The notes under the pieces are model-generated. The model saw only the letters and a program-made list of their open reading frames with translations. It was not told the DNA's origin and ran no database searches. A DNA stretch of 13,833 nt from Desulfobacterales bacterium (GTDB taxonomy: Bacteria; Desulfobacterota; Desulfobacteria; Desulfobacterales; JAUWMJ01): contig JAUWMJ010000025.1 of assembly GCA_030613225.1 (NCBI GenBank), forward strand, positions 1 through 13,833. Direction: 5' to 3'. The position numbers and the translations under genes were made by a program. The first letter of the stretch is position 1. Each line of letters opens with the position of its first letter. Positions 301-13,566 of the stretch are shown piece by piece.

Positions 301-3300
301 ATGCAAGAATCCATAGATATTTTTAATATTCACAAAAAAGTAATGGATGACTACAAGCATTTTGTTAGCAGCTTTATAAATATCGAAGATAAAAGAATAA
401 AAGAAGTAGTTGAAACAGAAATAAATCAAGGTAAGTTCTGGCCTGAACCTTTAATACAGTTTAACCCTTCATTTGAACAAGGTGAATCAGCACAGTCCCT
501 TTGTGACAAAGGCATACTGCATCCGGATATAGCTAATATTTTTAAGAATTACGATCTGTTCAAACATCAGGTTGAAGCAATAAAAAAAGGTATCGAGGGT
601 TTGGATTTTGTCGTTACTTCAGGTACAGGCTCCGGCAAGTCATTAACTTTTTTAGGCACAATATTTGATTACCTTTTACAAAATAAAACCGGAGCCGGGA
701 TTAAAGCGGTTATTGTTTATCCTATGAACGCTTTAATTAATTCCCAGTCTGAAGAGATAAAAAAATTTAGAGACAACTACAAAAATGCAACCGGTAAGGA
801 TTTTCCAATAACATTTGCAAAATACACGGGCCAGGAGGATGAAGAAGAAAGAAAGAGGATAAAGAGCAAACTCCCGGACATTATCCTTACAAATTATATG
901 ATGCTTGAGTTGATCCTGACAAGATCAAAAGAAGATATTATCCGAAATTCAATATTTGATAATCTTAAATACCTTGTATTGGATGAACTTCACACTTACA
1001 GAGGCAGACAGGGATCAGATGTAGCTATTTTAATAAGAAGAATTAAAGCACAGGCGGCTAATAGCATATTATGTATAGGCACTTCAGCCACTATGGTTTC
1101 TGAGGGTACAATTTTTGAACAGAAAAAGAAAGTGTCTGAGGTCGCATCAAAGATGTTCGGGACTCTGTTTTCAGAAGAGCAGGTTATCAATGAATATCTG
1201 ATTAGATGTTTTGATTTTCAAGGCAAACTGCCGAGTAAAAAAGATTTGGTAAAAGTCTTACAGGAAGAAATCAATCCTGATGACCCGGAAGAAAAATTAA
1301 AAACATTCCCATTAAGCGCCTGGCTTGAAAACAGAATAGCTCTTGATGAAAACAGCGGTCTGCTCGTAAGGCATAAACCCATGCAGTTTTCCCAGATAGT
1401 AAATCAGCTTGCCGAAGATACCGGTCTCGATGTAAGCCTTTGCGAATCACAGATAAGAAAGTTTTTGAGATGGATATCAAATGTTAACGAAAAGCTTGAA
1501 GATAAAAGATATACATACCTTCCGTATAAAGTTCACCAACTGATATCCCAAACAGGGACTGTATATGTTTCTCTGGACAATACTGATGACCGAACTATAA
1601 GTCTCGATCCTGCAAGCCATAAGGGCCATGGTGACAACAGAATTCCTTTATTTCCGGTAGTCTTTTCCAGGATTTCAGGTCATGAATTTATCTGTGTGAA
1701 TAAAGATCTTGATAATGAAGTTTTAAGGCCACGTGAGTTCAGAGAAATTTTAAGCGATGAAGAAGACATTACCTCAGGATATATTATTAAAGGCTCGGAT
1801 GTGTGGAATCCTGATACAGATCTTGAACAACTTCCTCCTGCCTGGGTTAAAGTTGACAGATCGGGTAATTACAAGCCTCAAAAAAGATATAAGGACAGAT
1901 TACCCCAAAAAATATATTTTGATCAAAAAGGAAATTTTTCAAGCAGAAACGAATATGAATATGAAGGCTGGTTTATGCCGGCAAAGCTTTTATTCGATCC
2001 TACATGCGGGGCGCAATACGATCCAAAAACAAATGAAGCAACGAAACTCACAAGGCTGGGCAGTGAAGGCCGCATCACGTCAACAACAGTGTTGTCATAT
2101 TCAGTTTTAACTCAACTTGAGGAGCATGGATTTCAGCCAAAAGACCAGAAGTTATTAAGCTTTACAGATAACAGGCAGGATGCCGCCCTTCAGTCAGGTC
2201 ATTTCAATGATTCATTAAAAGTTGTTCAGCTTAGATCAGCAATTTGTCAGGCCCTTATTAAAGACAAAGAGAGGGATTTTACAAATCTGGATCAGGCCAT
2301 ATTCGAGGCCCTTGATCTTTCTCCGGAAGAATATGCTGCTAATCCCGCAACAAAATTTCCTGGAGCAATAAAGGACAATGAAAATGCATTAAAAAACTAT
2401 TTAATGTATCGTGCCCTCTATGACTTAAGACGCGGCTGGCGGGTTGTGCTTCCTAACCTTGAGCAATGCGCTCTTCTTAGCATTGACTACAAACATCTCA
2501 ATGAGAACTGTACGTCTGATGAAAGCTGGCAAGGCGTGCCATTTCTTGAGGACCTTTCACATAAGGAGCGGACTGATATCGTTTCTGAAATTCTGGAATT
2601 TTTCAGGAAATCTTATGCACTGTCCAGTGAGGAGTATTTAACTCAAAACGCTATTAATGAGAAATACAAAGAAATTAAAGAAAGGTTAAAATCCCCATGG
2701 AAATTTGATGAAAACGAAAAAATAGCAACCCCGGTCAAAATGGCATATGAACCGTTAAAAAGAGGTTCCAGGATTTTCTGGAAAAGTATAGGGCCAACAA
2801 GTGCTTTGGGGAAATATTTTAAAGAGAAAGCTAAACTCAAGGGAATCGTTTTCAATAATAAAACTTACATAAATTTCATAAAACTATTACTAAAACTGCT
2901 AACAGAAGCAGGCTGGCTGAAGGAAACAACTGAAAAAAACAGGGACAATAAGGAAACATATCTATACCAGCTTAGGATTGACCAGATTATATGGAAGATA
3001 GGTGATGGCAAAACCATAAAGCCGGATTATGTTAAAATCAGATCATATAAAGGTTATGAACAAAAACCGAACACTTTTTATCAGAAATTATACCAGACTG
3101 ATTTTAGAAGCAGGAAAAAGCTGATTGGCAAGGAGCATACCGGCCAGATAGGCAATGAAGACAGGATAGAAAGGGAAGAAAAATTCAAAACAGGCGAATA
3201 CAGCGCCCTGTTCTGCTCACCTACGATGGAGCTTGGAATTGATATTGCAGATTTAAACGTTGTCCATATGAGAAATGTCCCACCCAACCCTGCAAACTAT

Positions 3301-5391
3301 GCACAAAGAAGCGGCAGGGCAGGAAGGAGCGGTCAGGCAGCGCTAATCTTTACAAGTTGTTCCGTGTATTCACCACATGACAGCCATTACTTCAAACATG
3401 CAACTGATCTTGTATCAGGCATTGTGGCCCCGCCTAAAATTGACCTCACAAACCAGGAATTGCTGGAGGCACATCTTAATGCAATATATCTTGCAAAAGT
3501 AAAACTAAGTGAGCTGAATCAGCATCTGATCGATCTTGTTGATAAAGACGATAAGGAAAATCTCCCTTTGTTATCTGAAATAAAGGAGCGGCTATATTTA
3601 GGACAGCATTTAAAAAATGAGATAAAACTGACATTTGAAAAAGTAATTGATGATATTGGAACCGGGATGCCTTCAACTTTGTCATGGCTGAATGATGAAT
3701 GGATAGACAGAGTAATCAACCTGGCACCTAAAACTTTTGACAGGTCTTTGGATAGATGGAGAAGATTATATATTGCCGTCCAAAAACAACTTTCTGAGGC
3801 TAACAGGATCATAGAAAGCGGCCTGTATCTGAGCACATCCGATGAAATGAAGGAGGCTAAAAGAAATGTTGCCCAGGCAATCAGGCAGAGAGATCTTCTT
3901 GAAAACAGAATATCTTACAGCAGCCTGTCGGAATTTTACCCTTACCGATATCTTGCATCTGAGGGTTTCCTGCCCGGATATAATTTCACACGCCTGCCCA
4001 TGAGAACATATATTCCTGTCGGTGATTCAGGAGAATATATATCACGACCAAGGTTTATTGCTTTAAGAGAGTTCGGTCCACGTAATATTATTTATCACAA
4101 AGGCTCCAAGTATCAGATAGAGCAATTGCTTTCACAGGAGTCGGAATCGCATTTAAAATCTGCAAAGGTCAGTACAAAGTCAGGTTATATCCTGATGGAA
4201 GATGAATATGATTATGAAATATGTCCTTTCAGTAATGTTTCGCTCAGTGGAGGTGAAAATAAGGAAATATTTACAGACCTTCTTGAAATGGCTGAAACCC
4301 GCACAAGGGAAATGGACAGGATCTCCTGTGAAGAGGAAGAGAGGCTCTCCCGCGGATTCGACATTAAAACATACTTTTCCATGCCGGCAGGTGGCCTGGA
4401 TAATATCCGCACTGCTAAAATTAAAAATGACGATGAAGAGTTCTTATATGTACGTTTTCTTCCATGCGCCCGTCTGGTACAGATCAACAATAAATGGCGG
4501 CGGTCAAAGGCTAAAGGCTTTTTAATGGGCTTAAATACAGGCGCATGGAAGAAAGAAACCTTTGATCATAATGCAGAATCAGCTGAACCGGTCAGAAGGA
4601 TAAAACTTGTCGCATATGATACGGCAGATGCCCTTTATATTGAGCCGATTAAATCTCTGGCCCTCACTCCGGCAGGCGTTATTACTTTGCAATACGCCCT
4701 CAAGCGCGCAGTTGAGAATGTTTTTCAGGTTGAGCCAAGAGAGATCGGTGCAGAGCTTATGGGAGATGAATCACAACCAAATATTTTTCTCTATGAGGCT
4801 TCAGAAGGGAGCCTTGGTGTTTTATCACAGTTTATTGAAGACAAGGATGTTTTTAGAAATGTTATTTCAGAAGCGATCAGCATATGCCGCTTTGATGATG
4901 AAAACTATGATGATGAAGCCTCTTATGATGATCTTTTGAACTATTATAACCAGCGATATCATGATGTGATTAACCGGTTTGAGATTAAAGATGCCCTTGA
5001 AAAGCTCAAAGTGTGTGATGTTGAAATCATTACCAGCAAAATATTTGGAGATTATGAAGAGCAGTATCAGCAGCTTTTAAAAGGTATTGATCCGAATTCT
5101 TCAACCGAACTTAAATTTCTAAATTATCTTCATGATAACGGCCTGAAGCTGCCGGATGGCACCCAGAAAGTTGTTGAAGGAATTTACTGCCAGCCTGATT
5201 TTTTCTATGAACCTGATGTGTGGGTTTTTTGCGATGGAACGCCCCATGATAAGCCTGAAGTTAAGAAAAAAGACAGAAACCAGCGCAGTGCGATTCTGAA
5301 CAGAGGGGATCAGGTTTTTGTGCATTATTACCAGGATAAATTGGAAGATATAATCGGCAAAAGGCCGGATATTTTTAAAAAGGTAAAATAA
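301..5391 (+). CDS. Giant DEAD/DEAH-type helicase with DUF1998-like region and C-terminal Vsr-like nuclease domain (DISARM DrmA/DrmB-like)
   Basis: A 1696-residue superfamily 2 helicase. Lobe 1 has Walker A (S107-GTGSGKS-S114, K113), a DELH Walker B box (D228-H231) and SAT (262-264). Family marks follow: F565-DPTCGAQY, GSEGR (587-591) and FTDNRQDAALQSGHFND (621-637). A long insert includes a winged-helix-like stretch near 860-885. Lobe 2 has EHTGQ (945-949), GIDIADL (979-985) and the motif VI box QRSGRAGR (1002-1009). Residues about 1440-1550 resemble DUF1998, ending in YDDLLNYYNQ (1542-1551), but the usual cysteines are missing. Residues about 1590-1690 look like a Vsr/DUF559-type PD-(D/E)XK domain: E1603, PDFFY (D1633), VFCDG..H (D1645, H1649). 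It combines the features of DISARM DrmA and DUF1998-bearing DrmB. The expected role is ATP-driven translocation on phage DNA coupled to cleavage. It is the first gene of the operon. Helicase identity is firm; the nuclease call is motif-based. Confidence 0.88.
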   Translation: MQESIDIFNIHKKVMDDYKHFVSSFINIEDKRIKEVVETEINQGKFWPEPLIQFNPSFEQGESAQSLCDKGILHPDIANIFKNYDLFKHQVEAIKKGIEGLDFVVTSGTGSGKSLTFLGTIFDYLLQNKTGAGIKAVIVYPMNALINSQSEEIKKFRDNYKNATGKDFPITFAKYTGQEDEEERKRIKSKLPDIILTNYMMLELILTRSKEDIIRNSIFDNLKYLVLDELHTYRGRQGSDVAILIRRIKAQAANSILCIGTSATMVSEGTIFEQKKKVSEVASKMFGTLFSEEQVINEYLIRCFDFQGKLPSKKDLVKVLQEEINPDDPEEKLKTFPLSAWLENRIALDENSGLLVRHKPMQFSQIVNQLAEDTGLDVSLCESQIRKFLRWISNVNEKLEDKRYTYLPYKVHQLISQTGTVYVSLDNTDDRTISLDPASHKGHGDNRIPLFPVVFSRISGHEFICVNKDLDNEVLRPREFREILSDEEDITSGYIIKGSDVWNPDTDLEQLPPAWVKVDRSGNYKPQKRYKDRLPQKIYFDQKGNFSSRNEYEYEGWFMPAKLLFDPTCGAQYDPKTNEATKLTRLGSEGRITSTTVLSYSVLTQLEEHGFQPKDQKLLSFTDNRQDAALQSGHFNDSLKVVQLRSAICQALIKDKERDFTNLDQAIFEALDLSPEEYAANPATKFPGAIKDNENALKNYLMYRALYDLRRGWRVVLPNLEQCALLSIDYKHLNENCTSDESWQGVPFLEDLSHKERTDIVSEILEFFRKSYALSSEEYLTQNAINEKYKEIKERLKSPWKFDENEKIATPVKMAYEPLKRGSRIFWKSIGPTSALGKYFKEKAKLKGIVFNNKTYINFIKLLLKLLTEAGWLKETTEKNRDNKETYLYQLRIDQIIWKIGDGKTIKPDYVKIRSYKGYEQKPNTFYQKLYQTDFRSRKKLIGKEHTGQIGNEDRIEREEKFKTGEYSALFCSPTMELGIDIADLNVVHMRNVPPNPANYAQRSGRAGRSGQAALIFTSCSVYSPHDSHYFKHATDLVSGIVAPPKIDLTNQELLEAHLNAIYLAKVKLSELNQHLIDLVDKDDKENLPLLSEIKERLYLGQHLKNEIKLTFEKVIDDIGTGMPSTLSWLNDEWIDRVINLAPKTFDRSLDRWRRLYIAVQKQLSEANRIIESGLYLSTSDEMKEAKRNVAQAIRQRDLLENRISYSSLSEFYPYRYLASEGFLPGYNFTRLPMRTYIPVGDSGEYISRPRFIALREFGPRNIIYHKGSKYQIEQLLSQESESHLKSAKVSTKSGYILMEDEYDYEICPFSNVSLSGGENKEIFTDLLEMAETRTREMDRISCEEEERLSRGFDIKTYFSMPAGGLDNIRTAKIKNDDEEFLYVRFLPCARLVQINNKWRRSKAKGFLMGLNTGAWKKETFDHNAESAEPVRRIKLVAYDTADALYIEPIKSLALTPAGVITLQYALKRAVENVFQVEPREIGAELMGDESQPNIFLYEASEGSLGVLSQFIEDKDVFRNVISEAISICRFDDENYDDEASYDDLLNYYNQRYHDVINRFEIKDALEKLKVCDVEIITSKIFGDYEEQYQQLLKGIDPNSSTELKFLNYLHDNGLKLPDGTQKVVEGIYCQPDFFYEPDVWVFCDGTPHDKPEVKKKDRNQRSAILNRGDQVFVHYYQDKLEDIIGKRPDIFKKVK

Positions 5392-5395
5392 ATCC

Positions 5396-8251
5396 ATGAG
5401 ATTCAAAGCAGGTTCACTGGTTTCAGCCCGAAACAGGGACTGGGTTGTCCTCCCTTCAAATGATGACAAGCTGGTTTTGTTAAAGCCGCTTGGCGGGTCA
5501 GAAGAAGAAATAACAGGTATTTATCTACCCCTTGCTTTTGCCGAGGACAGGATCGAGTCCGCAAATTTTCCATATCCTTCTGCGAAAGATCTGGGGGATA
5601 TTGCCTCTGCCAGACTGCTTCACAATGCTGCAAGGCTGTCCTTTAGAAACGGTGCAGGCCCTTTCAGGTCTTTGGCAAAGTTTTCATTCAGGCCGCGCTC
5701 CTACCAGATGGTTCCGCTTATCATGGCGCTCAAGCAGGAAGGCCCCATACGGCTGTTAATTGCAGATGATGTGGGTGTGGGCAAAACAATCGAAGCCCTG
5801 ATAATATTAAAAGAGCTTCTTGAAAGAAGAGAGATAAAACGTTTTGCCGTTATTGTTCTGCCCCATTTATGTGAGCAGTGGCAGGCAGAGCTCAAAGACA
5901 AATTCGGTATTGAGGCTGTTGTCATCAGGTCAAACACACAGGCAAGGCTGGACAGGGAAATTCCGGGCGACACGAGCGTATTTCACCATTATCCATACCA
6001 GGTTATTTCCATTGATTATATAAAATCCGACCAGCGCAGGCAGGTTTTTATTCAGGAATGTCCGGACTTTATTATTGTTGATGAGGCACATACATGCTCG
6101 GTGGCTTCAGGAGCAAAGACCGTCCAGCAGCAGAGATATCAACTCATTAGAGATATTTCAAAAAAGCCCGGCCAGCATATGATGTATCTTACCGCAACTC
6201 CTCACAGTGGCAAGTCAGAGCAGTTCAGCTCCCTTCTCGGTTTAATACAGCCTGAATATCAGTCTCTTGATCTTCCAGGCGCGACTCAAAACCAGCGCAG
6301 GGACCTTGCAAGATATTATGTTCAGAGAAGGCGGGCTGATGTCGAAAAGTGGATGAACGAAGACACCCCTTTCCCAAAACGGGATGCCGGAGAATTTCAG
6401 TATGACCTGTCAAAAAAGTATTCAGAGTTTTATGATGATATCCTCGATTTTGCACTCGGCCTGACAAGAAGCGGTGATCTTCATGAAGGCAGGAAACGCA
6501 TAAGATACTGGTCCGCTCTTGCTCTGCTTAGGGGTGTAATGTCAAGCCCTGCTGCAGGCGTTGAAATGATAAAAAACCGGATAAAAAACAAGGTAAAAAA
6601 ACAAACTGTTTCTGATGAAACTGACGATGCTGTTGAAACAGATGAAAACCCAATCATAGATGATGATTATGACAGCGCAAAGGATTATACACCCACCGGA
6701 ATTATAAATAAAACAGACTGGACAGACACTGAAAATAAAAAGTTGGATAAACTTGCAAAGCTGCTGGAAGAACTTCATGGTATAGATCACGATTTAAAAG
6801 CAGCCCGAGTACTGGAAATTGTCAGCAAATGGCTGAAAGAGGGCTATAACCCTGTTGTGTTCTGCCGTTTTATCAAAACTGCCAATTACCTTGGAGAGAT
6901 TCTTAAAATAAATTTGAAAAAAATCAATATTCAGGTTGTTACCAGTGAAGATCCTGACGAGGTCAGGAAGGCAAGAATCGATGACATGGAATCATCTTCC
7001 AAAAAGATTCTTGTCGCTACCGACTGCATGAGCGAAGGAATAAACCTTCAGGATCAGTTTACCGCAGTGTTGCATTATGACCTTCCCTGGAACCCGAACC
7101 GCCTGGAACAGCGTGAAGGGAGAATTGACCGTTACGGCCAGAGGTCGGAAAATGTTAAGGCATACCTTTTGTACGGCACAAACAACCCAATAGACGGAGT
7201 TGTGCTGAAAGTCCTTTTAAGAAAAGTACGGGAGATTAGGCGCTCTACGGGAATTTCCATACCATTTCCTGAAGACAGCAAATCCCTTATGGATTCAGTT
7301 CTCCAGGCTGTTATTTCAGATTCACAAGCTGCGGCAAAAAGGCGCAATGCAAGACAGCTTACATTTGATTTCGGTGAAGTCAATGAAGTCAGACAAAAGG
7401 AGCTTATTGCAACAAAGGCTATTGAAGAGGCAGCAGACCGTGAACATGCATCACGAACCATATTTGCTCAGCATGCCATTAAGGCAAATGAAATCGAGCA
7501 GGACCTCAAACAGGCAGATGAGGCTATTGGAAACCCTGAAGCAGTTGAGTCTTTTGTTACAGAATCGTTAATGAACATCCTTGGAGTTCAGATATCAAAA
7601 GACAGAAAAGCCTATGGATATACACTGTTTACGATAAACCTTCCGCCTGTTTTAAAAAGCGCTCTCCCTCCGGAAAAACAGCTCAAGGTCAGTTTTTTCT
7701 CACCCACTCCTGAAGGATATATCTATCTTGGTCGAAATCATCTTTTTGTTGAACAGCTTTGCCAGTATCTTATGGCAAACGCGTTAAGCAGTAATACCGA
7801 ATACGGCCCTGCCAGGTCAGCCGTAATAAAATGCAAAGACGTAAAGATTAAAACAACACTTTTACTTTTCAGGGTCAGAAACGTTATCGAGGAAAAGAAA
7901 GGCAAAAACCAGTTTGTAGCCGAGGAAATGCTTTTATGGGGCTACAGGGGCAGCCCTTCTGATAATGATATTTTAGATAAGGATGAAGTCAGGCATTTGA
8001 TGGATCAGGTACTTCCGTCCGCAAATATTACTGAGCAGGCAAAGGCGAGCTTTCTTGAAAATGAGCTGGAAAACATTTCAGAGCTTAGAAATGAATTTGA
8101 TAAAATTGCCCTTAAAAGGGCTGAAATCCTGGTTGATGCCCATGAGCGGTTCAGAAAAATAATGGGCGGAAAAAGATTCAAGGTTGTTGAGCCTGTTCTC
8201 CCAATGGATCTAATGGGAGTATATATTTTATTGCCGGACAGAGGGAATTAA
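5396..8251 (+). CDS. SNF2/RapA-type DNA helicase, DrmD-like
   Basis: A 951-residue SNF2-family ATPase. It has a Q-like motif in RSYQ, Walker A DDVGVGKT (D124-T131, K130), DEAH (229-232), TATPH (266-270), an ATDCMSEGINLQ motif V (541-552) and a QREGRIDRYGQ motif VI (572-582). A charged linker near 395-430, rich in Lys then Asp/Glu, separates the two lobes. The segment after the helicase core includes QLTFDFGE (654-661), followed by a helical region and a C-terminal domain like that of RapA/DrmD-type defence helicases. It begins 4 bases after the previous stop. AAAAGG at 5378-5383, inside the end of that gene, probably serves as its ribosome site, so the two genes are very likely co-transcribed and translationally coupled. 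In DISARM the matching subunit is DrmD, whose exact reaction is not established. SNF2 family is certain; the DrmD assignment rests on context and overall layout. Confidence 0.85.
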   Translation: MRFKAGSLVSARNRDWVVLPSNDDKLVLLKPLGGSEEEITGIYLPLAFAEDRIESANFPYPSAKDLGDIASARLLHNAARLSFRNGAGPFRSLAKFSFRPRSYQMVPLIMALKQEGPIRLLIADDVGVGKTIEALIILKELLERREIKRFAVIVLPHLCEQWQAELKDKFGIEAVVIRSNTQARLDREIPGDTSVFHHYPYQVISIDYIKSDQRRQVFIQECPDFIIVDEAHTCSVASGAKTVQQQRYQLIRDISKKPGQHMMYLTATPHSGKSEQFSSLLGLIQPEYQSLDLPGATQNQRRDLARYYVQRRRADVEKWMNEDTPFPKRDAGEFQYDLSKKYSEFYDDILDFALGLTRSGDLHEGRKRIRYWSALALLRGVMSSPAAGVEMIKNRIKNKVKKQTVSDETDDAVETDENPIIDDDYDSAKDYTPTGIINKTDWTDTENKKLDKLAKLLEELHGIDHDLKAARVLEIVSKWLKEGYNPVVFCRFIKTANYLGEILKINLKKINIQVVTSEDPDEVRKARIDDMESSSKKILVATDCMSEGINLQDQFTAVLHYDLPWNPNRLEQREGRIDRYGQRSENVKAYLLYGTNNPIDGVVLKVLLRKVREIRRSTGISIPFPEDSKSLMDSVLQAVISDSQAAAKRRNARQLTFDFGEVNEVRQKELIATKAIEEAADREHASRTIFAQHAIKANEIEQDLKQADEAIGNPEAVESFVTESLMNILGVQISKDRKAYGYTLFTINLPPVLKSALPPEKQLKVSFFSPTPEGYIYLGRNHLFVEQLCQYLMANALSSNTEYGPARSAVIKCKDVKIKTTLLLFRVRNVIEEKKGKNQFVAEEMLLWGYRGSPSDNDILDKDEVRHLMDQVLPSANITEQAKASFLENELENISELRNEFDKIALKRAEILVDAHERFRKIMGGKRFKVVEPVLPMDLMGVYILLPDRGN

Positions 8252-8262
8252 AAAGGTGCTTA

Positions 8263-8814
8263 ATGAAAAAAATGATACCTATAGAAAGAATTGCGAGTAA
8301 GATTTACCTCATACGGGATATGAAGGTTATGCTGGACAGGGATCTGGCGGAGCTTTACGCTGTTGAAACAAGACGTTTAAAGGAACAGGTACGAAGAAAC
8401 ATTGAAAGATTTCCGGAAGATTTCATGTTTGAACTAACACAAGAGGAATTAAAAAATTGGAGATCGCAATTTGCGACCTCCAATCAGGATTTAATGGGAT
8501 TACGTGTTAAACCATTTGTTTTTACAGAGCATGGTGTACTGATGCTTTCTTCTGTATTAAAAAGCGAAAGAGCTGTTCAGGTAAACATACAAATAATGCG
8601 GACATTTACAAAACTCCGCCAGGTGATTCTCGATAATGAAGACTTCAGAAGGGAGCTGGATAAACTCAACCAGATCACCGAAGAGCGGTTTCGTATAGTA
8701 TTTGAAACTCTGGATAAGTTATTGGCAGTAGAAATTAAGCCTAAGAAAAAAATCGGATATACGGTAAAAGAGAAAGTAACCAAATACGGGCACGCAAAGC
8801 CACAAAGGTACTAA
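8263..8814 (+). CDS. ORF6N-domain protein (phage antirepressor-type DNA-binding domain)
   Basis: A 183-residue protein. Residues about 7-95 match the ORF6N domain: IASKIYLIRDMKVMLDRDLA, then LYAVETRRLKEQVRRN, FPEDFMFELT, the RSQFATSN segment and FTEHGVLMLSSVL. A coiled-coil-like helix follows (about 110-150), then the usual lysine-rich tail with KKKIGY. ORF6N domains occur in phage KilA-N/antirepressor proteins and in many chromosomal accessory genes; DNA binding is the accepted guess, without a known target. The ATG at 8263 has AAAAGG at 8251-8256, six bases away; M4 at 8272 is a possible alternative. It lies 11 bases after the SNF2 gene and is therefore part of the operon. It could be a regulator of the cassette or a phage sensor; nothing in the sequence decides between these. 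Confidence 0.82.
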   Translation: MKKMIPIERIASKIYLIRDMKVMLDRDLAELYAVETRRLKEQVRRNIERFPEDFMFELTQEELKNWRSQFATSNQDLMGLRVKPFVFTEHGVLMLSSVLKSERAVQVNIQIMRTFTKLRQVILDNEDFRRELDKLNQITEERFRIVFETLDKLLAVEIKPKKKIGYTVKEKVTKYGHAKPQRY

Positions 8815-9013: not shown

Positions 9014-12000
9014 ATGAAATACACCACCATACGCATCGAAGGCGCAATACTCTCAGCCGATATTTTAGATAAGATCGAACAGGGGGAACTTGGCGGCCAG
9101 CTTGCCAAAGATTTTGGCTTTGATACAAAAATAAAGGTCAAGGATGAAATCGCAAGGGCATGGGCGGATGCCCAGGATTTGTGGAGAATATTCAAAAGGC
9201 AAAAAGAAAAAGTTGCTGAGCATGAATACGGAACCACGGAAACAAGAAAATTCTGGATGATCCCCCTGCTCGGATTGTTCGGATATGATGCCCAGCTTTC
9301 AAAGGCGGAAACCGTTCATGGTAAATCATATGCAGTCAGCCACAGTGTAACCAATCTTGACAGATTCCCTATTCATATAGTGGGGTTCAATGACAGTCTT
9401 GATAAAAAGCGAACAGACAGCGGACCCCGCATGTCCCCACATGCCCTTTTACAGGAATATATAAATCTTACCGAGCATCTTTACACCATAGTAACAAACG
9501 GCATTCATCTACGGCTTCTTCGTGACAGCAGCAGGCTTATAAAGCTTTCATTTATAGAGTTTGACCTTGAGACCATGATGGAAGAAGAGCATTATGCGGA
9601 CTTTGCCATCATGTATCGCCTTCTCCATTCAAGCCGCATGCCTGTAAAAACGGATATGGGCGCAGAGAGCCTGATTGAAAAATATCATCAGGACGCGCTG
9701 GATTCAGGGTCAAGAATTCGGGAAGGTTTAAGTAATGCCGTAGAATTTTCCATACGTTCTCTTGCAAACGGTTTTCTGGAACATGCAGATAATGAAGACC
9801 TCCGGGAAAAAATTGATAATGAGAAAATTTCAGCATCTAAATTTTATCAATACCAGCTTCGCCTTATCTACAGGCTTTTATTTTTGATGGTTATTGAAGA
9901 AAGAAACCTGATTTTTCCTGCCAATGCGGATAAAACCAAAAGAGAAATCTATTATGAATATTACAGCGTAAACCACCTCAGAAGGCTTTGTGAAAAACTC
10001 TATCTTGCTGATCAGAGGTTTAATGATCTGTGGATTACTCTTAAAAATACATTTCATCTTTTTGAGAGTGAAATAAAGGGCAAACATCTGGGGCTGAGCC
10101 CCTTAGCCGGCGACCTGTTCGGATATAATGCAATCGGCATTTTGAACAAGTGCAATCTCGATAACAAAATACTTCTGGAGTGCCTAAGGAACCTAAGCGT
10201 ATTTATAAATAAGAATACCGGCCAGAAGATGCGGGTGAATTATGCCTCGTTGAATGTTGAAGAGTTCGGATCGGTTTATGAGGGCCTGCTTGAATATGAC
10301 CCGTTGATTACAAAACAGGGAGGAGTTTATCAGTTTAATCTTGTTAAAGGGTCAGGCCGGTCTTCATCCGGTTCCCACTATACGCCGGATGAACTTGTAC
10401 AGCCGCTTATAAAGCATTCTCTGGATTATGTAATTAAAGACAAACTGAAATCATCCGACCAAAAATCAGAAAAAGAAAAAGCTTTATTATCCATTAAGGT
10501 TTGTGATGTTGCATGCGGCAGCGGGCATATATTGCTTAATGCAGCAAGAAGGATCGGAACCGAACTTGCAAAGGTCAGGACAGGGGAAGATCAACCTTCC
10601 CCTGCGCCATTGCGCCTGGCAATCAGGGATGTGATAAAAAACTGCATTTATGGCGTGGACAAGAATCCTCTCGCTGTTGAACTATGCAAGGTTGCCCTGT
10701 GGCTTGAGGCGCATAATCCAGGAGAGCCTTTAAACTTTCTTGATCATCATATCAAATGTGGTGATGCCATTGTCGGTCTGGCGTATAAAGAAGAGCTTAA
10801 CAATGGGATTGCTGATGAGGCGTTTAAAAAGATGCCGGGTGATGACAAGGATATCAGGGCTGAACTGGCAAAGAGAAATAAGAGAGAAAGGAAGGGTAGA
10901 AAGCAGCGTCATTTTGATTTCGGCGAAACTGTTGAAGGCTCATTTGCAGATATTTCTATGATGTTTAACCGGTTTAACAGGCTCCCGGAAAGTACTATTG
11001 AAGAGATAGAATACAAGCGGAAAGAATATGAAAATATGACTTCTGGAGCTAACTGGCTCCGTTTGAAGACACTTGCAGATATTCAAGTTGCCCAATTCTT
11101 TATACCGAAAAATGAGGAAAATGTTAAAAAGATTGTAACTGATGAAGAGTATCTGGACTATTTAAGTGGAACAAAGGTTGTTCATCCAATGAAAGCGGGG
11201 ATGGTTGGAGGTGTTTCAGCAAAAAAAAGGTTTTTCAATTGGTTTCTGGAGTTTCCAGTTGTTTTTGCGGCAGGAGGATTTGATTGTATTTTGGGGAACC
11301 CACCTTTTTTACTTGGCAAAAAGATCAGTGGAAAATTCGGAGATAATTTTTTAAACTTTATCAAAACATATTTTACTCCTGCTAAGGGAAATATTGATCT
11401 TGTAGGTTACTTTTTTAGAAGAGTTTTTTCATTGATAAAAAGTGGGGGTTATCAAAGTTTAATCTCAACAAATACTATTTCACAAGGTGATACACGTAGG
11501 GCATCTCTTCATGAAATCAATACAGTTGATGGTTCAATAATATTTGCTGTTCCCTCAATGAAATGGCCTGGCAAAGCAGCAGTAGAAATATCTCTGGTCT
11601 CTATTTATAAAGGCATTTGGAATAATAAGTTTGTTTTAAATAGTAATATTGTAAATCAAATCACTTCATATTTAGACGACGAGGAGGATTTTGGTAATCC
11701 ATTTTCCTTATTAGAAAATAATAGAATAGGTTTTCAAGGCGTTGTTGTGCTTGGTACAGGTTTTATTATTACATCTGAACAAGCAAACGACTTAATTATG
11801 AGAAATCCAAAAAATAAAAATATTTTGTTCCGATATCTCAATGGCAAAGATCTTAATAACACCATTGATCAATCTGCAAGCAGGTGGATTATTAACTTTT
11901 TTAATTGGGAAGAAGATGTTTGCAGTCGACAATATCCAGAATGTTTTTCAATTGTTGAGAAACTTGTAAAAATTGAAAGGGAACAAAAGAAACAAAAGGA

Positions 12001-12796
12001 CTATAGAGAAAAATGGTGGCAATATGCCAGAAAAGGAGTTGATCTTTACAAGACGATTTCTGATATTGAAAAAGTTATTTTAATAGCTAGAACAAGCAAA
12101 ACATTAGCTTTCGATATTAATGTTAAAAATCAAGTCTTTAGTGCAAACCTTACTGTTATTGCTTTGGAATCATATGGTGAATTTGCAATCCTTCAGTCAA
12201 ATCTACATAGTTCTTGGGTTTGGAAATATTGCACTACCATGAAAACTGATCCAATATATGCTCCAGTTGATGTAATTCGAAATTATCCTTTTCCACATAA
12301 TATAGCTTCAAAACTAAATGATAATCTCAATCTGATTGGTCGAAAATATTTTGAACATCGCAAAAAACTTATGGCACAGATAAAAATTGGGCTGACTAAA
12401 ATATATAATCTCTTCCATAATAGGAATTTAGTTATTGATGATATCAACAAGGTGAGTAAACAACAAAAAATCTACGAAGAAACATTTGAAGATATATTCA
12501 AATTTCGAGAGTTCCACAAACAAATGGATGAAACGGTTCTAAAGGCCTACGGCTGGATAGACATAAACCTTGCCCATGATTTCTATGAAGTGGATTATCT
12601 GCCTGAAAATGACCGCATTCGATACACAATTTCACCTGATGCCAGAAAAGAAGTCCTGAAGCGCCTGCTAAAACTAAACCACGAAATCCATGAGCAGGAA
12701 GTCAAAGCCGGTCTGCATGCTAAAGGAATAACCAAAAAGAAAAAAATAAAAAAGCAAAAAAAAGCCGATGCACCAGCACAGATGAAATTGTTTTGA
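9014..12796 (+). CDS. Eco57I/PglX-like N6-adenine DNA methyltransferase, DrmMI-like
   Basis: A 1260-residue gamma-order-like amino-methyltransferase. The N-terminal domain (about 1-400) has SPHALLQEY (141-149) and VTNGIHLRLLRD (160-171), the layout of the nuclease-derived N-terminus of type IIG/PglX-like enzymes, but with FPIHIVGFN (118-126) where an active nuclease would carry E-x-K. The S-adenosylmethionine motif I is D498-VACGSGH-H505; GVDKNP (D549) and CGDAIVG (D584) follow; the catalytic motif IV is NPPF (762-765). The target-recognition part carries FRYLNGKDL (939-947) and WWQYARKG (1001-1008). The C-terminus is a lysine-rich tail (1241-1250) ending QMKLF. Residues about 776-1176 are encoded by DNA much more AT-rich than the rest. 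The expected role is modification of host DNA so that the helicases spare it. Methyltransferase identity is firm; equivalence to DISARM DrmMI is inferred from the neighbours. Confidence 0.88.
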   Translation: MKYTTIRIEGAILSADILDKIEQGELGGQLAKDFGFDTKIKVKDEIARAWADAQDLWRIFKRQKEKVAEHEYGTTETRKFWMIPLLGLFGYDAQLSKAETVHGKSYAVSHSVTNLDRFPIHIVGFNDSLDKKRTDSGPRMSPHALLQEYINLTEHLYTIVTNGIHLRLLRDSSRLIKLSFIEFDLETMMEEEHYADFAIMYRLLHSSRMPVKTDMGAESLIEKYHQDALDSGSRIREGLSNAVEFSIRSLANGFLEHADNEDLREKIDNEKISASKFYQYQLRLIYRLLFLMVIEERNLIFPANADKTKREIYYEYYSVNHLRRLCEKLYLADQRFNDLWITLKNTFHLFESEIKGKHLGLSPLAGDLFGYNAIGILNKCNLDNKILLECLRNLSVFINKNTGQKMRVNYASLNVEEFGSVYEGLLEYDPLITKQGGVYQFNLVKGSGRSSSGSHYTPDELVQPLIKHSLDYVIKDKLKSSDQKSEKEKALLSIKVCDVACGSGHILLNAARRIGTELAKVRTGEDQPSPAPLRLAIRDVIKNCIYGVDKNPLAVELCKVALWLEAHNPGEPLNFLDHHIKCGDAIVGLAYKEELNNGIADEAFKKMPGDDKDIRAELAKRNKRERKGRKQRHFDFGETVEGSFADISMMFNRFNRLPESTIEEIEYKRKEYENMTSGANWLRLKTLADIQVAQFFIPKNEENVKKIVTDEEYLDYLSGTKVVHPMKAGMVGGVSAKKRFFNWFLEFPVVFAAGGFDCILGNPPFLLGKKISGKFGDNFLNFIKTYFTPAKGNIDLVGYFFRRVFSLIKSGGYQSLISTNTISQGDTRRASLHEINTVDGSIIFAVPSMKWPGKAAVEISLVSIYKGIWNNKFVLNSNIVNQITSYLDDEEDFGNPFSLLENNRIGFQGVVVLGTGFIITSEQANDLIMRNPKNKNILFRYLNGKDLNNTIDQSASRWIINFFNWEEDVCSRQYPECFSIVEKLVKIEREQKKQKDYREKWWQYARKGVDLYKTISDIEKVILIARTSKTLAFDINVKNQVFSANLTVIALESYGEFAILQSNLHSSWVWKYCTTMKTDPIYAPVDVIRNYPFPHNIASKLNDNLNLIGRKYFEHRKKLMAQIKIGLTKIYNLFHNRNLVIDDINKVSKQQKIYEETFEDIFKFREFHKQMDETVLKAYGWIDINLAHDFYEVDYLPENDRIRYTISPDARKEVLKRLLKLNHEIHEQEVKAGLHAKGITKKKKIKKQKKADAPAQMKLF

Positions 12797-12835: not shown

Positions 12836-12866
12836 AATGAATAATGTCCATAAAAAGGAGAATGGA

Positions 12867-13172
12867 ATGCTTACGGTTGAAGAAAAGCAGGAATTGAAAA
12901 AAGAGCTTGTTTCCATTTTTAAGGATGAAAAGGATATCCTCAAGGTTGTTATTTTCGGATCATTTCTAAGTTCTGACAGCCCGCAGGATATGGATGTGGC
13001 TGTTTTCCAGGAAAGCTCTGAAGGATACATCAAGCTTGCAATGAAATACAGAAAAATGACAAGAGTGGTTTCAAAAAAAATTCCTATTGATATTTTCCCG
13101 ATAAGATCCAATGCCGATGATGCATCGATTCTCTCGGAAATAGAAACTGGAGAGGTGGTATATGAAAAATGA
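12867..13172 (+). CDS. Minimal nucleotidyltransferase (MNT) domain protein, partner of the HEPN protein
   Basis: A 101-residue protein from the ATG at 12867, chosen because AAGGAG at 12855-12860 lies six bases upstream. An in-frame ATG at 12837 has no ribosome site and falls beside the palindrome. The fold signature is VVIFGSF (G31-S32), D41-M-D43 and a third acidic residue in PIDIF (D75), the metal-binding triad of DNA polymerase beta-type nucleotidyltransferases. The spacing between GS and DxD is 8 residues, shorter than the GSX10DXD usual in MNT antitoxins. In HEPN-MNT pairs the MNT protein neutralises the HEPN toxin, in studied cases by transferring AMP groups onto it. Its 3' end overlaps the HEPN gene by 11 bases, so they are translated together. 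Confidence 0.85.
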   Translation: MLTVEEKQELKKELVSIFKDEKDILKVVIFGSFLSSDSPQDMDVAVFQESSEGYIKLAMKYRKMTRVVSKKIPIDIFPIRSNADDASILSEIETGEVVYEK

Positions 13173-13566
13173 AACAAAAACCTGGCTGGATTATGCTGCT
13201 GAAAATCTCGAATCCGCCCGAATTTTACTGGACAGCAATCTTTTCAATTCCTGTCTGCAGAATATTCAGCAATGTGTTGAAAAGCTGTTGAAAGCTGTTT
13301 TTGTGGAACTTTCCGCCAAACTCATTAAAACGCACAGTATCTCCAGATTAGCACAAGTACTGGTGGATAAAGGTGTGGCGGCACATATTACCGATGATGA
13401 ATGTGATCTCCTCGACACCATCTATTTGCCTTCTAAATATCCCATTGGTAGCGTTATTCCCGATTATGACCCGGATGCTGATATTTGCCAGGAGTGTATG
13501 GACATTGCCCACCGTGTGGAAAAATCAGTAAAAGTAATTATCTCAAAAATTGGAAAGGTTCGGTGA
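13162..13566 (+). CDS. HEPN-domain protein (pfam05168 type), partner of MNT
   Basis: A 134-residue all-helical protein. It shows W8-LDYAAENL, the QQCVEKLLKA segment (36-45) and KTHS (56-59) followed by a helix. YLPSKYP (88-94) and a final amphipathic helix come next, the usual order in this HEPN group. GGAGAGG at 13149-13155 is six bases before the ATG. It overlaps MNT by 11 bases, the usual arrangement of an MNT-HEPN toxin-antitoxin or nucleotide-transfer pair. I find no RX4-6H sequence, the RNase motif of toxic HEPN proteins, and the position often R in SRYP is K92. Toxicity by RNA cleavage is therefore doubtful; it may instead be a substrate-binding partner of MNT. Pair identity is well supported, function is not. 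Confidence 0.82.
   Translation: MKNETKTWLDYAAENLESARILLDSNLFNSCLQNIQQCVEKLLKAVFVELSAKLIKTHSISRLAQVLVDKGVAAHITDDECDLLDTIYLPSKYPIGSVIPDYDPDADICQECMDIAHRVEKSVKVIISKIGKVR

What the first reader, a model, noticed from the sequence alone, without database searches (positions are those of the whole stretch)
5053..5388. Vsr-like nuclease domain fused to the C-terminus of a helicase-DUF1998 protein
The last 110 or so residues of the giant helicase carry E1603 in a STELKF helix, PDFFY with D1633, VWVFCDGTPHD with D1645 and H1649, then a KKKDRNQRSAIL helix and a QVFVHYY strand. This order matches very-short-patch-repair (Vsr) and DUF559-type endonucleases, where a PDF strand is followed by a hydrophobic-F-x-D-G...H strand and a charged helix. 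Classical DISARM has its nuclease-like DrmC as a separate phospholipase D-type gene, and none is present here. A motor with a built-in nuclease would change how the system destroys phage DNA.
Basis: partly seen in the sequence, partly recalled or inferred. Interest (0 to 1): 0.72.

Follow-up and report, generated by a model that had tools for sequence, protein, structure and literature searches.

The report
DNA-cutting domain on an ARMADA helicase
A giant bacterial anti-virus helicase carries a small DNA-cutting domain at its tail with its likely working parts conserved; this arrangement was already described in 2025 as part of the ARMADA defence system, but one branch of relatives seems to have lost the domain and carries a separate cutting enzyme instead.

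Summary

The system is not DISARM. It is ARMADA Type I (YprA-like helicase, BrxHII-like SNF2 protein, PglX-like methyltransferase). A 2025 preprint (PMC12458937) already describes a predicted active Vsr nuclease fused there, so the finding itself is not new; its text reports no nuclease mutant.

One lead appears new. In one clade of 17 ARMADA I helicases the fused domain is eroded. Of 16 such operons with visible downstream DNA, 15 carry a homologous HNH_2 endonuclease gene after the methyltransferase, against 0 of 55 operons with an intact domain. This is one evolutionary switch, not many, but it suggests that ARMADA I needs a nuclease and can exchange it.

The parts
301..5391 (+). YprA-family SF2 helicase, 1696 aa (DEAD + Helicase_C + MZB/DUF1998 canopy + C-terminal nuclease)
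5062..5388 (+). C-terminal Vsr/DUF559-class (EDxHD-like) nuclease domain, residues 1588-1696
5107..5109 (+). E1603, aligns with Vsr E25
5197..5199 (+). D1633, aligns with Vsr D51
5233..5235 (+). D1645 of the DGxxH strand, aligns with Vsr H64
5245..5247 (+). H1649, near Vsr H69 (gap in that alignment)
5272..5274 (+).
4687..4872 (+). MZB/DUF1998 match; the Cx3Cx2C cysteine pattern sought just after it is absent in the window
5396..8251 (+). BrxHII/DrmD/DpdE-like SNF2 protein, 951 aa
   Evidence: PADLOC DpdE 1.1e-169, DrmD 6.1e-88; found beside the helicase in related loci
9014..12796 (+). PglX/DrmMI-like adenine methyltransferase, 1260 aa
   Evidence: PADLOC DrmMI 1.1e-230; Eco57I 4.6e-22
8263..8814 (+). 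ORF6N-domain protein between the SNF2 and methyltransferase genes; not conserved in related loci
   Evidence: ORF6N E 1.4e-35; no homologue at E<=1e-4 in 88 related loci

Best explanation
The gene is the YprA-like helicase of an ARMADA Type I anti-phage system. Its last ~109 residues are a catalytically competent Vsr/DUF559-class endonuclease (residues E1603, D1633, D1645, H1649, D1658). Shown here by sequence and predicted fold: the domain, its conserved motif, and its place after the DUF1998 canopy. Inferred: the PglX-like methyltransferase marks self DNA; the SNF2 partner and the helicase engage unmarked or single-strand-containing phage DNA; the helicase translocates, and the tethered nuclease nicks or cuts the strand leaving the canopy, so motor and scissors are one polypeptide.
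For: Conservation of the five residues. Purifying selection: nonsynonymous difference is as low in the tail as in the core (pN 0.107 and 0.118, pS ~0.7, window vs L001). Fold. Mapping to E. coli Vsr: hhalign E 5e-5, probability 66%. Gene order helicase > SNF2 > methyltransferase in 45 of 88 loci; SNF2 > methyltransferase > helicase in 7, four of them cyanobacteria, an order the ARMADA preprint reports for cyanobacteria. Relatives in one clade that lost the fused site carry an HNH endonuclease gene. DruE of Druantia III is described as a helicase-nuclease effector (PMC13192584, abstract and passages). Several stand-alone pieces of this domain already bear JGI's name 'very-short-patch-repair endonuclease' (9 of 120 listed).
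Confidence: 0.78

Rival explanations
1. The domain no longer cuts; it only binds DNA and steadies the canopy or a partner protein, like the inactivated Vsr domains of Druantia I/II.
For: Inactivated Vsr domains exist in related helicases; eroded tails persist in 19 of 132 C-termini surveyed here (one of the 19, L048, is a piece of a split gene).
Against: All five residues are kept in the window and, at >=4 of 5, in 112 of 132 C-termini. When the residues go, the domain usually becomes unrecognisable: 16 of the 19 eroded tails score no more than 0 bits or give no hit with the domain profile, as expected if catalysis was the selected function.
Confidence: 0.13
2. The domain acts on RNA or binds RNA, like RAP domains, which share the Vsr fold.
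Against: The motif matches endonuclease-like 3hrl, with E, D, D, H and D all aligned, and the partners are a SNF2 protein and a DNA methyltransferase.
Confidence: 0.05
3. The locus is a DISARM variant in which the nuclease moved from DrmC into the motor.
For: DrmD and DrmMI profiles hit two of the genes.
Against: The helicase itself matches DruE (1.7e-77) far better than DrmA (4.1e-12); helicase and DUF1998 are one gene; the preprint places such operons with ARMADA.
Confidence: 0.03

Closest known systems
ARMADA Type I (Bell et al., bioRxiv Sept 2025, PMC12458937)
   Same: YprA-like helicase first, then BrxHII-like and PglX-like genes; C-terminal domain described as a predicted active Vsr-type nuclease; other order in many cyanobacteria
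   Different: Window carries an ORF6N gene inside the operon and an MNT/HEPN pair after it; the DUF1998 cysteine pattern is missing; the domain's profile is closer to DUF559 than to Vsr
E. coli Vsr endonuclease
   Different: H64 is D1645; no Vsr profile hit in the window; no evidence of T:G mismatch recognition
I-Bth0305I (EDxHD homing endonuclease) catalytic domain
   Different: Phage homing enzyme with its own DNA-binding region (passages of PMC3943268); here tethered to a helicase
3hrl, endonuclease-like protein (that it is DUF559-type is recalled)
   Same: Best profile hit in the PDB (E 0.0023), all five motif residues aligned
   Different: Small free-standing protein of 104 residues
DruE of Druantia III
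   Same: Helicase with a fused C-terminal nuclease (abstract and passages)
   Different: Its nuclease is of PLD type; partner is DruH, not SNF2 and methyltransferase

Membership tests
ARMADA Type I | YprA-like helicase of the DruE/ARMADA branch with DUF1998 canopy in one chain | tested here: met
   (by profile and fold; not by a tree with references)
ARMADA Type I | Order helicase, BrxHII-like, PglX-like methyltransferase; no GajB-like fourth gene | tested here: met
   an ORF6N gene is inserted before the methyltransferase; only the DNA inside the window was seen
ARMADA Type I | C-terminal predicted active Vsr-type nuclease | tested here: met
ARMADA Type I | HTH with long helical finger between RecA2 and the canopy | tested here: inconclusive
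   Model residues 52-160 (protein 1092-1200) are long helices; fold not matched to a reference
ARMADA Type I | BrxA-like domain after RecA1, beta-barrel and MarR-like inserts in RecA2 | not tested
   Residues 1-1040 were not modelled
ARMADA Type I | Position in a tree with the authors' reference sequences | not tested
   Reference accessions not fetched; window groups with loci of the same gene order
ARMADA Type I | Anti-phage activity | not testable with these tools
   The preprint's experiment is on a Type II cluster
Vsr (PF03852) | Profile hit | tested here: not met
   No hit in the window; 1 of 54 members at E<=0.01; 5 of 66 at E<=1
Vsr-like PD-(D/E)xK fold | Fold and catalytic E, D, (H/D), H, D set | tested here: met
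DUF559 (PF04480) | Profile hit | tested here: inconclusive
   No hit in the window itself; 30 of 54 relatives hit, best 5.6e-8
DISARM | DrmA helicase with separate DrmB and DrmC genes | tested here: not met
   Helicase and DUF1998 fused; no PLD domain in the six ORFs scanned with Pfam

The most novel reading that the evidence does not exclude
ARMADA I has an exchangeable nuclease slot. In one clade (named members in Pseudomonadota and Campylobacterota) the fused Vsr-like domain decayed in place while an HNH_2 endonuclease gene, placed after the methyltransferase, took over the cutting step. 15 of 16 eroded operons with visible downstream sequence carry it, against 0 of 55 intact operons, 10 of which are close sisters of the eroded clade. 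The motor then recruits its scissors in trans.
Probability: 0.55. Interest if true: 0.55.

Novelty: new member of a known kind. Interest (0 to 1): 0.4.

Why it matters
If active, the domain makes the ARMADA helicase a one-chain motor-nuclease, explaining how a system without a separate nuclease gene destroys phage DNA. The five named residues give a direct test that the ARMADA paper's text does not report. The HNH exchange gives a second, natural test: two lineages with the same motor and different scissors. Such a swap would argue that DNA cleavage, not only unwinding or DNA marking, is needed for defence.

Tried and rejected
Pfam on the window's tail alone gave only weak hits (Imm48, Imm3, DUF7316; E 0.014-0.25), read as chance. 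DISARM membership was rejected on the helicase profile and gene structure. Many independent HNH swaps were considered: a first FastTree set L095 apart, but IQ-TREE on 36 rows puts the 17 eroded helicases of that group in one clade (SH-aLRT 99). It therefore counts as one event, and the Fisher value (1.7e-14 with L095 added by hand) is not a probability of independent change; the independent-pairs test had only 1 pair. HNH exclusivity to ARMADA was tested and fails: of 16 plasmid records with an HNH match over at least 80% of its length, 14 also appear in the helicase list, but in Rhizobium sp. SU303 and Paracoccus versutus no helicase lies within the 14 kb fetched on each side. The HNH may thus be a neighbouring module. 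In Kozakia (L093) no HNH follows in 4.9 kb; an IS21 element sits there. The HNH search used seven HNH proteins from eroded loci as queries, so an unlike nuclease beside intact operons would be missed. VIA-align is a second look at Foldseek's list, so absences there mean little. One domain search for stand-alone relatives (120 of 472 listed) gave many proteins on short contigs, read as pieces, and was not pursued.

Full report
What is there. The ORF at 301-5391 encodes a 1,696-aa protein with DEAD, Helicase_C and MZB (MrfA zinc-binding, DUF1998) matches. It is followed by a 951-aa SNF2 protein, an ORF6N protein, a 1,260-aa adenine methyltransferase, and a small MNT/HEPN pair. PADLOC's best matches for the three large proteins are DruE, DpdE (with DrmD next) and DrmMI.

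The observation. In the 120 listed close homologues (of 432 found) they are kept in 120, 120, 120 and 119. In 78 long ORFs drawn from 88 genome and viral loci, they are kept in 74, 75, 74 and 76; ten loci were left out because the ORF was short or cut. The amino-acid difference to the nearest relative L001 is as low in the tail as in the core (pN 0.107 and 0.118; synonymous sites near saturation).

The system. Bell et al. (PMC12458937; abstract, sections 5-9, legends and searched passages seen) define ARMADA. In Type I the YprA-like helicase generally comes first, then BrxHII-like and PglX-like genes; in many archaea and cyanobacteria that pair precedes the helicase; [quoted passage not shown] Of 88 loci, 45 show helicase > SNF2 > methyltransferase and 7 SNF2 > methyltransferase > helicase, four of these cyanobacteria; 20 show the helicase alone, 12 helicase > SNF2, 3 other orders, and L088 fell below the score limit. 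Many of these partial ones are short contigs; I did not check each. So the window is ARMADA Type I, and its nearest relatives are Thermodesulfobacteriota. The fused nuclease is therefore already described. The paper's text tests helicase and methyltransferase motifs of a Type II system and reports no nuclease mutant. A 2026 review counts ARMADA among systems with unknown restriction mechanism (passage, PMC12904381). Searches for ARMADA with YprA and Vsr, with phage and defence, with HNH, and for 'ARMADA Type I' gave three papers in all. The only HNH mention in PMC12458937's main text is a reference title, and the HNH passages shown from PMC13192584 (12 of 13 places) concern the Zorya nuclease ZorE or a reference. 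Supplementary files could not be read.

An exchange of nucleases. One plasmid homologue, from Sphingomonas sp. MM-1 (L092), lacks all five residues and has an HNH endonuclease gene overlapping the end of the methyltransferase gene by 4 bases. I then gathered further plasmid and genome loci. Of 132 C-termini from 131 sources, 112 keep at least four of the five residues, 19 are eroded (one, L048, is a piece of a split gene) and 1 is partial. Where the methyltransferase lies downstream of the helicase with at least 1.2 kb visible after it, a homologous HNH gene on the same strand is present in 14 of 15 eroded and 0 of 55 intact operons; five of these proteins, L195 included, were run against Pfam and all five hit HNH_2, PF13391. 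In Hydrogenimonas (L095) the methyltransferase runs across the plasmid start and an HNH_2 gene follows about 3 kb later on the same strand (L195), which makes 15 of 16. With at least 4.5 kb visible the figures are 11 of 12 and 0 of 19; in the intact sisters of the clade, 0 of 10. The exception, Kozakia, has an IS21 element after the methyltransferase. In L140 the contig ends there. IQ-TREE groups the 17 eroded helicases as one clade (SH-aLRT 99); Hydrogenimonas is basal, and A. caldus (L096) and L126 still show weak domain similarity (27 and 23 bits), which looks like gradual decay. It is one event. HNH relatives also occur without the helicase nearby in two plasmid records, so the HNH may be a separate module.

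Mechanism. Shown: motor, canopy and a conserved nuclease motif in one chain, under strong constraint. Inferred: translocation on phage DNA feeds the strand to the nuclease; methylation protects the host. The exchange clade, if causal, says that cutting is required.

Verdict. Real, correctly read as a Vsr-like nuclease, wrongly set in DISARM, and already known as a feature of ARMADA I. The HNH clade is the new lead.

Noticed in passing
window 8263-8814: ORF6N-domain (anti-repressor-like) gene inserted between the SNF2 and methyltransferase genes; no homologue at E<=1e-4 in the 88 related loci.
   Followed up: partly
window 12837-13566: Overlapping MNT nucleotidyltransferase and HEPN genes after the operon, resembling a type VII toxin-antitoxin pair (MntA model hit far below its cut-off); no homologue at E<=1e-4 in the 88 related loci.
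   Followed up: partly
window 4687-4980; clade of 45 rows: The DUF1998 cysteine pattern (Cx3Cx2C, a pattern match only) is missing in the window and its whole 45-row clade but present in 31 of 33 rows of the sister clade; the preprint says the 4-cysteine cluster characterises the entire YprA family and was lost in Dpd.
   Followed up: partly
L092 22977-23777 and 14 further loci: HNH endonuclease gene downstream of the methyltransferase found only where the fused nuclease is eroded.
   Followed up: yes
L183 4412-7838; L105 25073-28982: McrBC-like genes follow the methyltransferase in two operons (an actinomycete-phylum genome and Nocardioides); in L183 the fused nuclease is partly eroded (EDE-D), in L105 all five residues are kept.
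   Followed up: partly
L091, L094, L099, L102, L103, L010, L023, L032, L070: Similar SMC-like ATPase genes after the methyltransferase in both intact and eroded operons; the two scanned, L091 and L094, hit DUF2326 and LmuB weakly.
   Followed up: no
L089 11004-22500: Deinococcus radiodurans R1 plasmid pMP1 carries an ARMADA I operon with all five nuclease residues and the methyltransferase annotated as two genes.
   Followed up: no
L098 25458-28160: UvrD-like helicase gene in a Type I-ordered operon of Croceicoccus, weakly similar to GajB, reminiscent of the GajB-like gene of ARMADA II.
   Followed up: no
window 3859-3936 (residues 1187-1212): Sub-threshold match to YqgB 'virulence promoting factor' (18.9 bits, cut-off 24); close homologues P0003 and P0011 bear that name in public records, probably by this stray match.
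   Followed up: no
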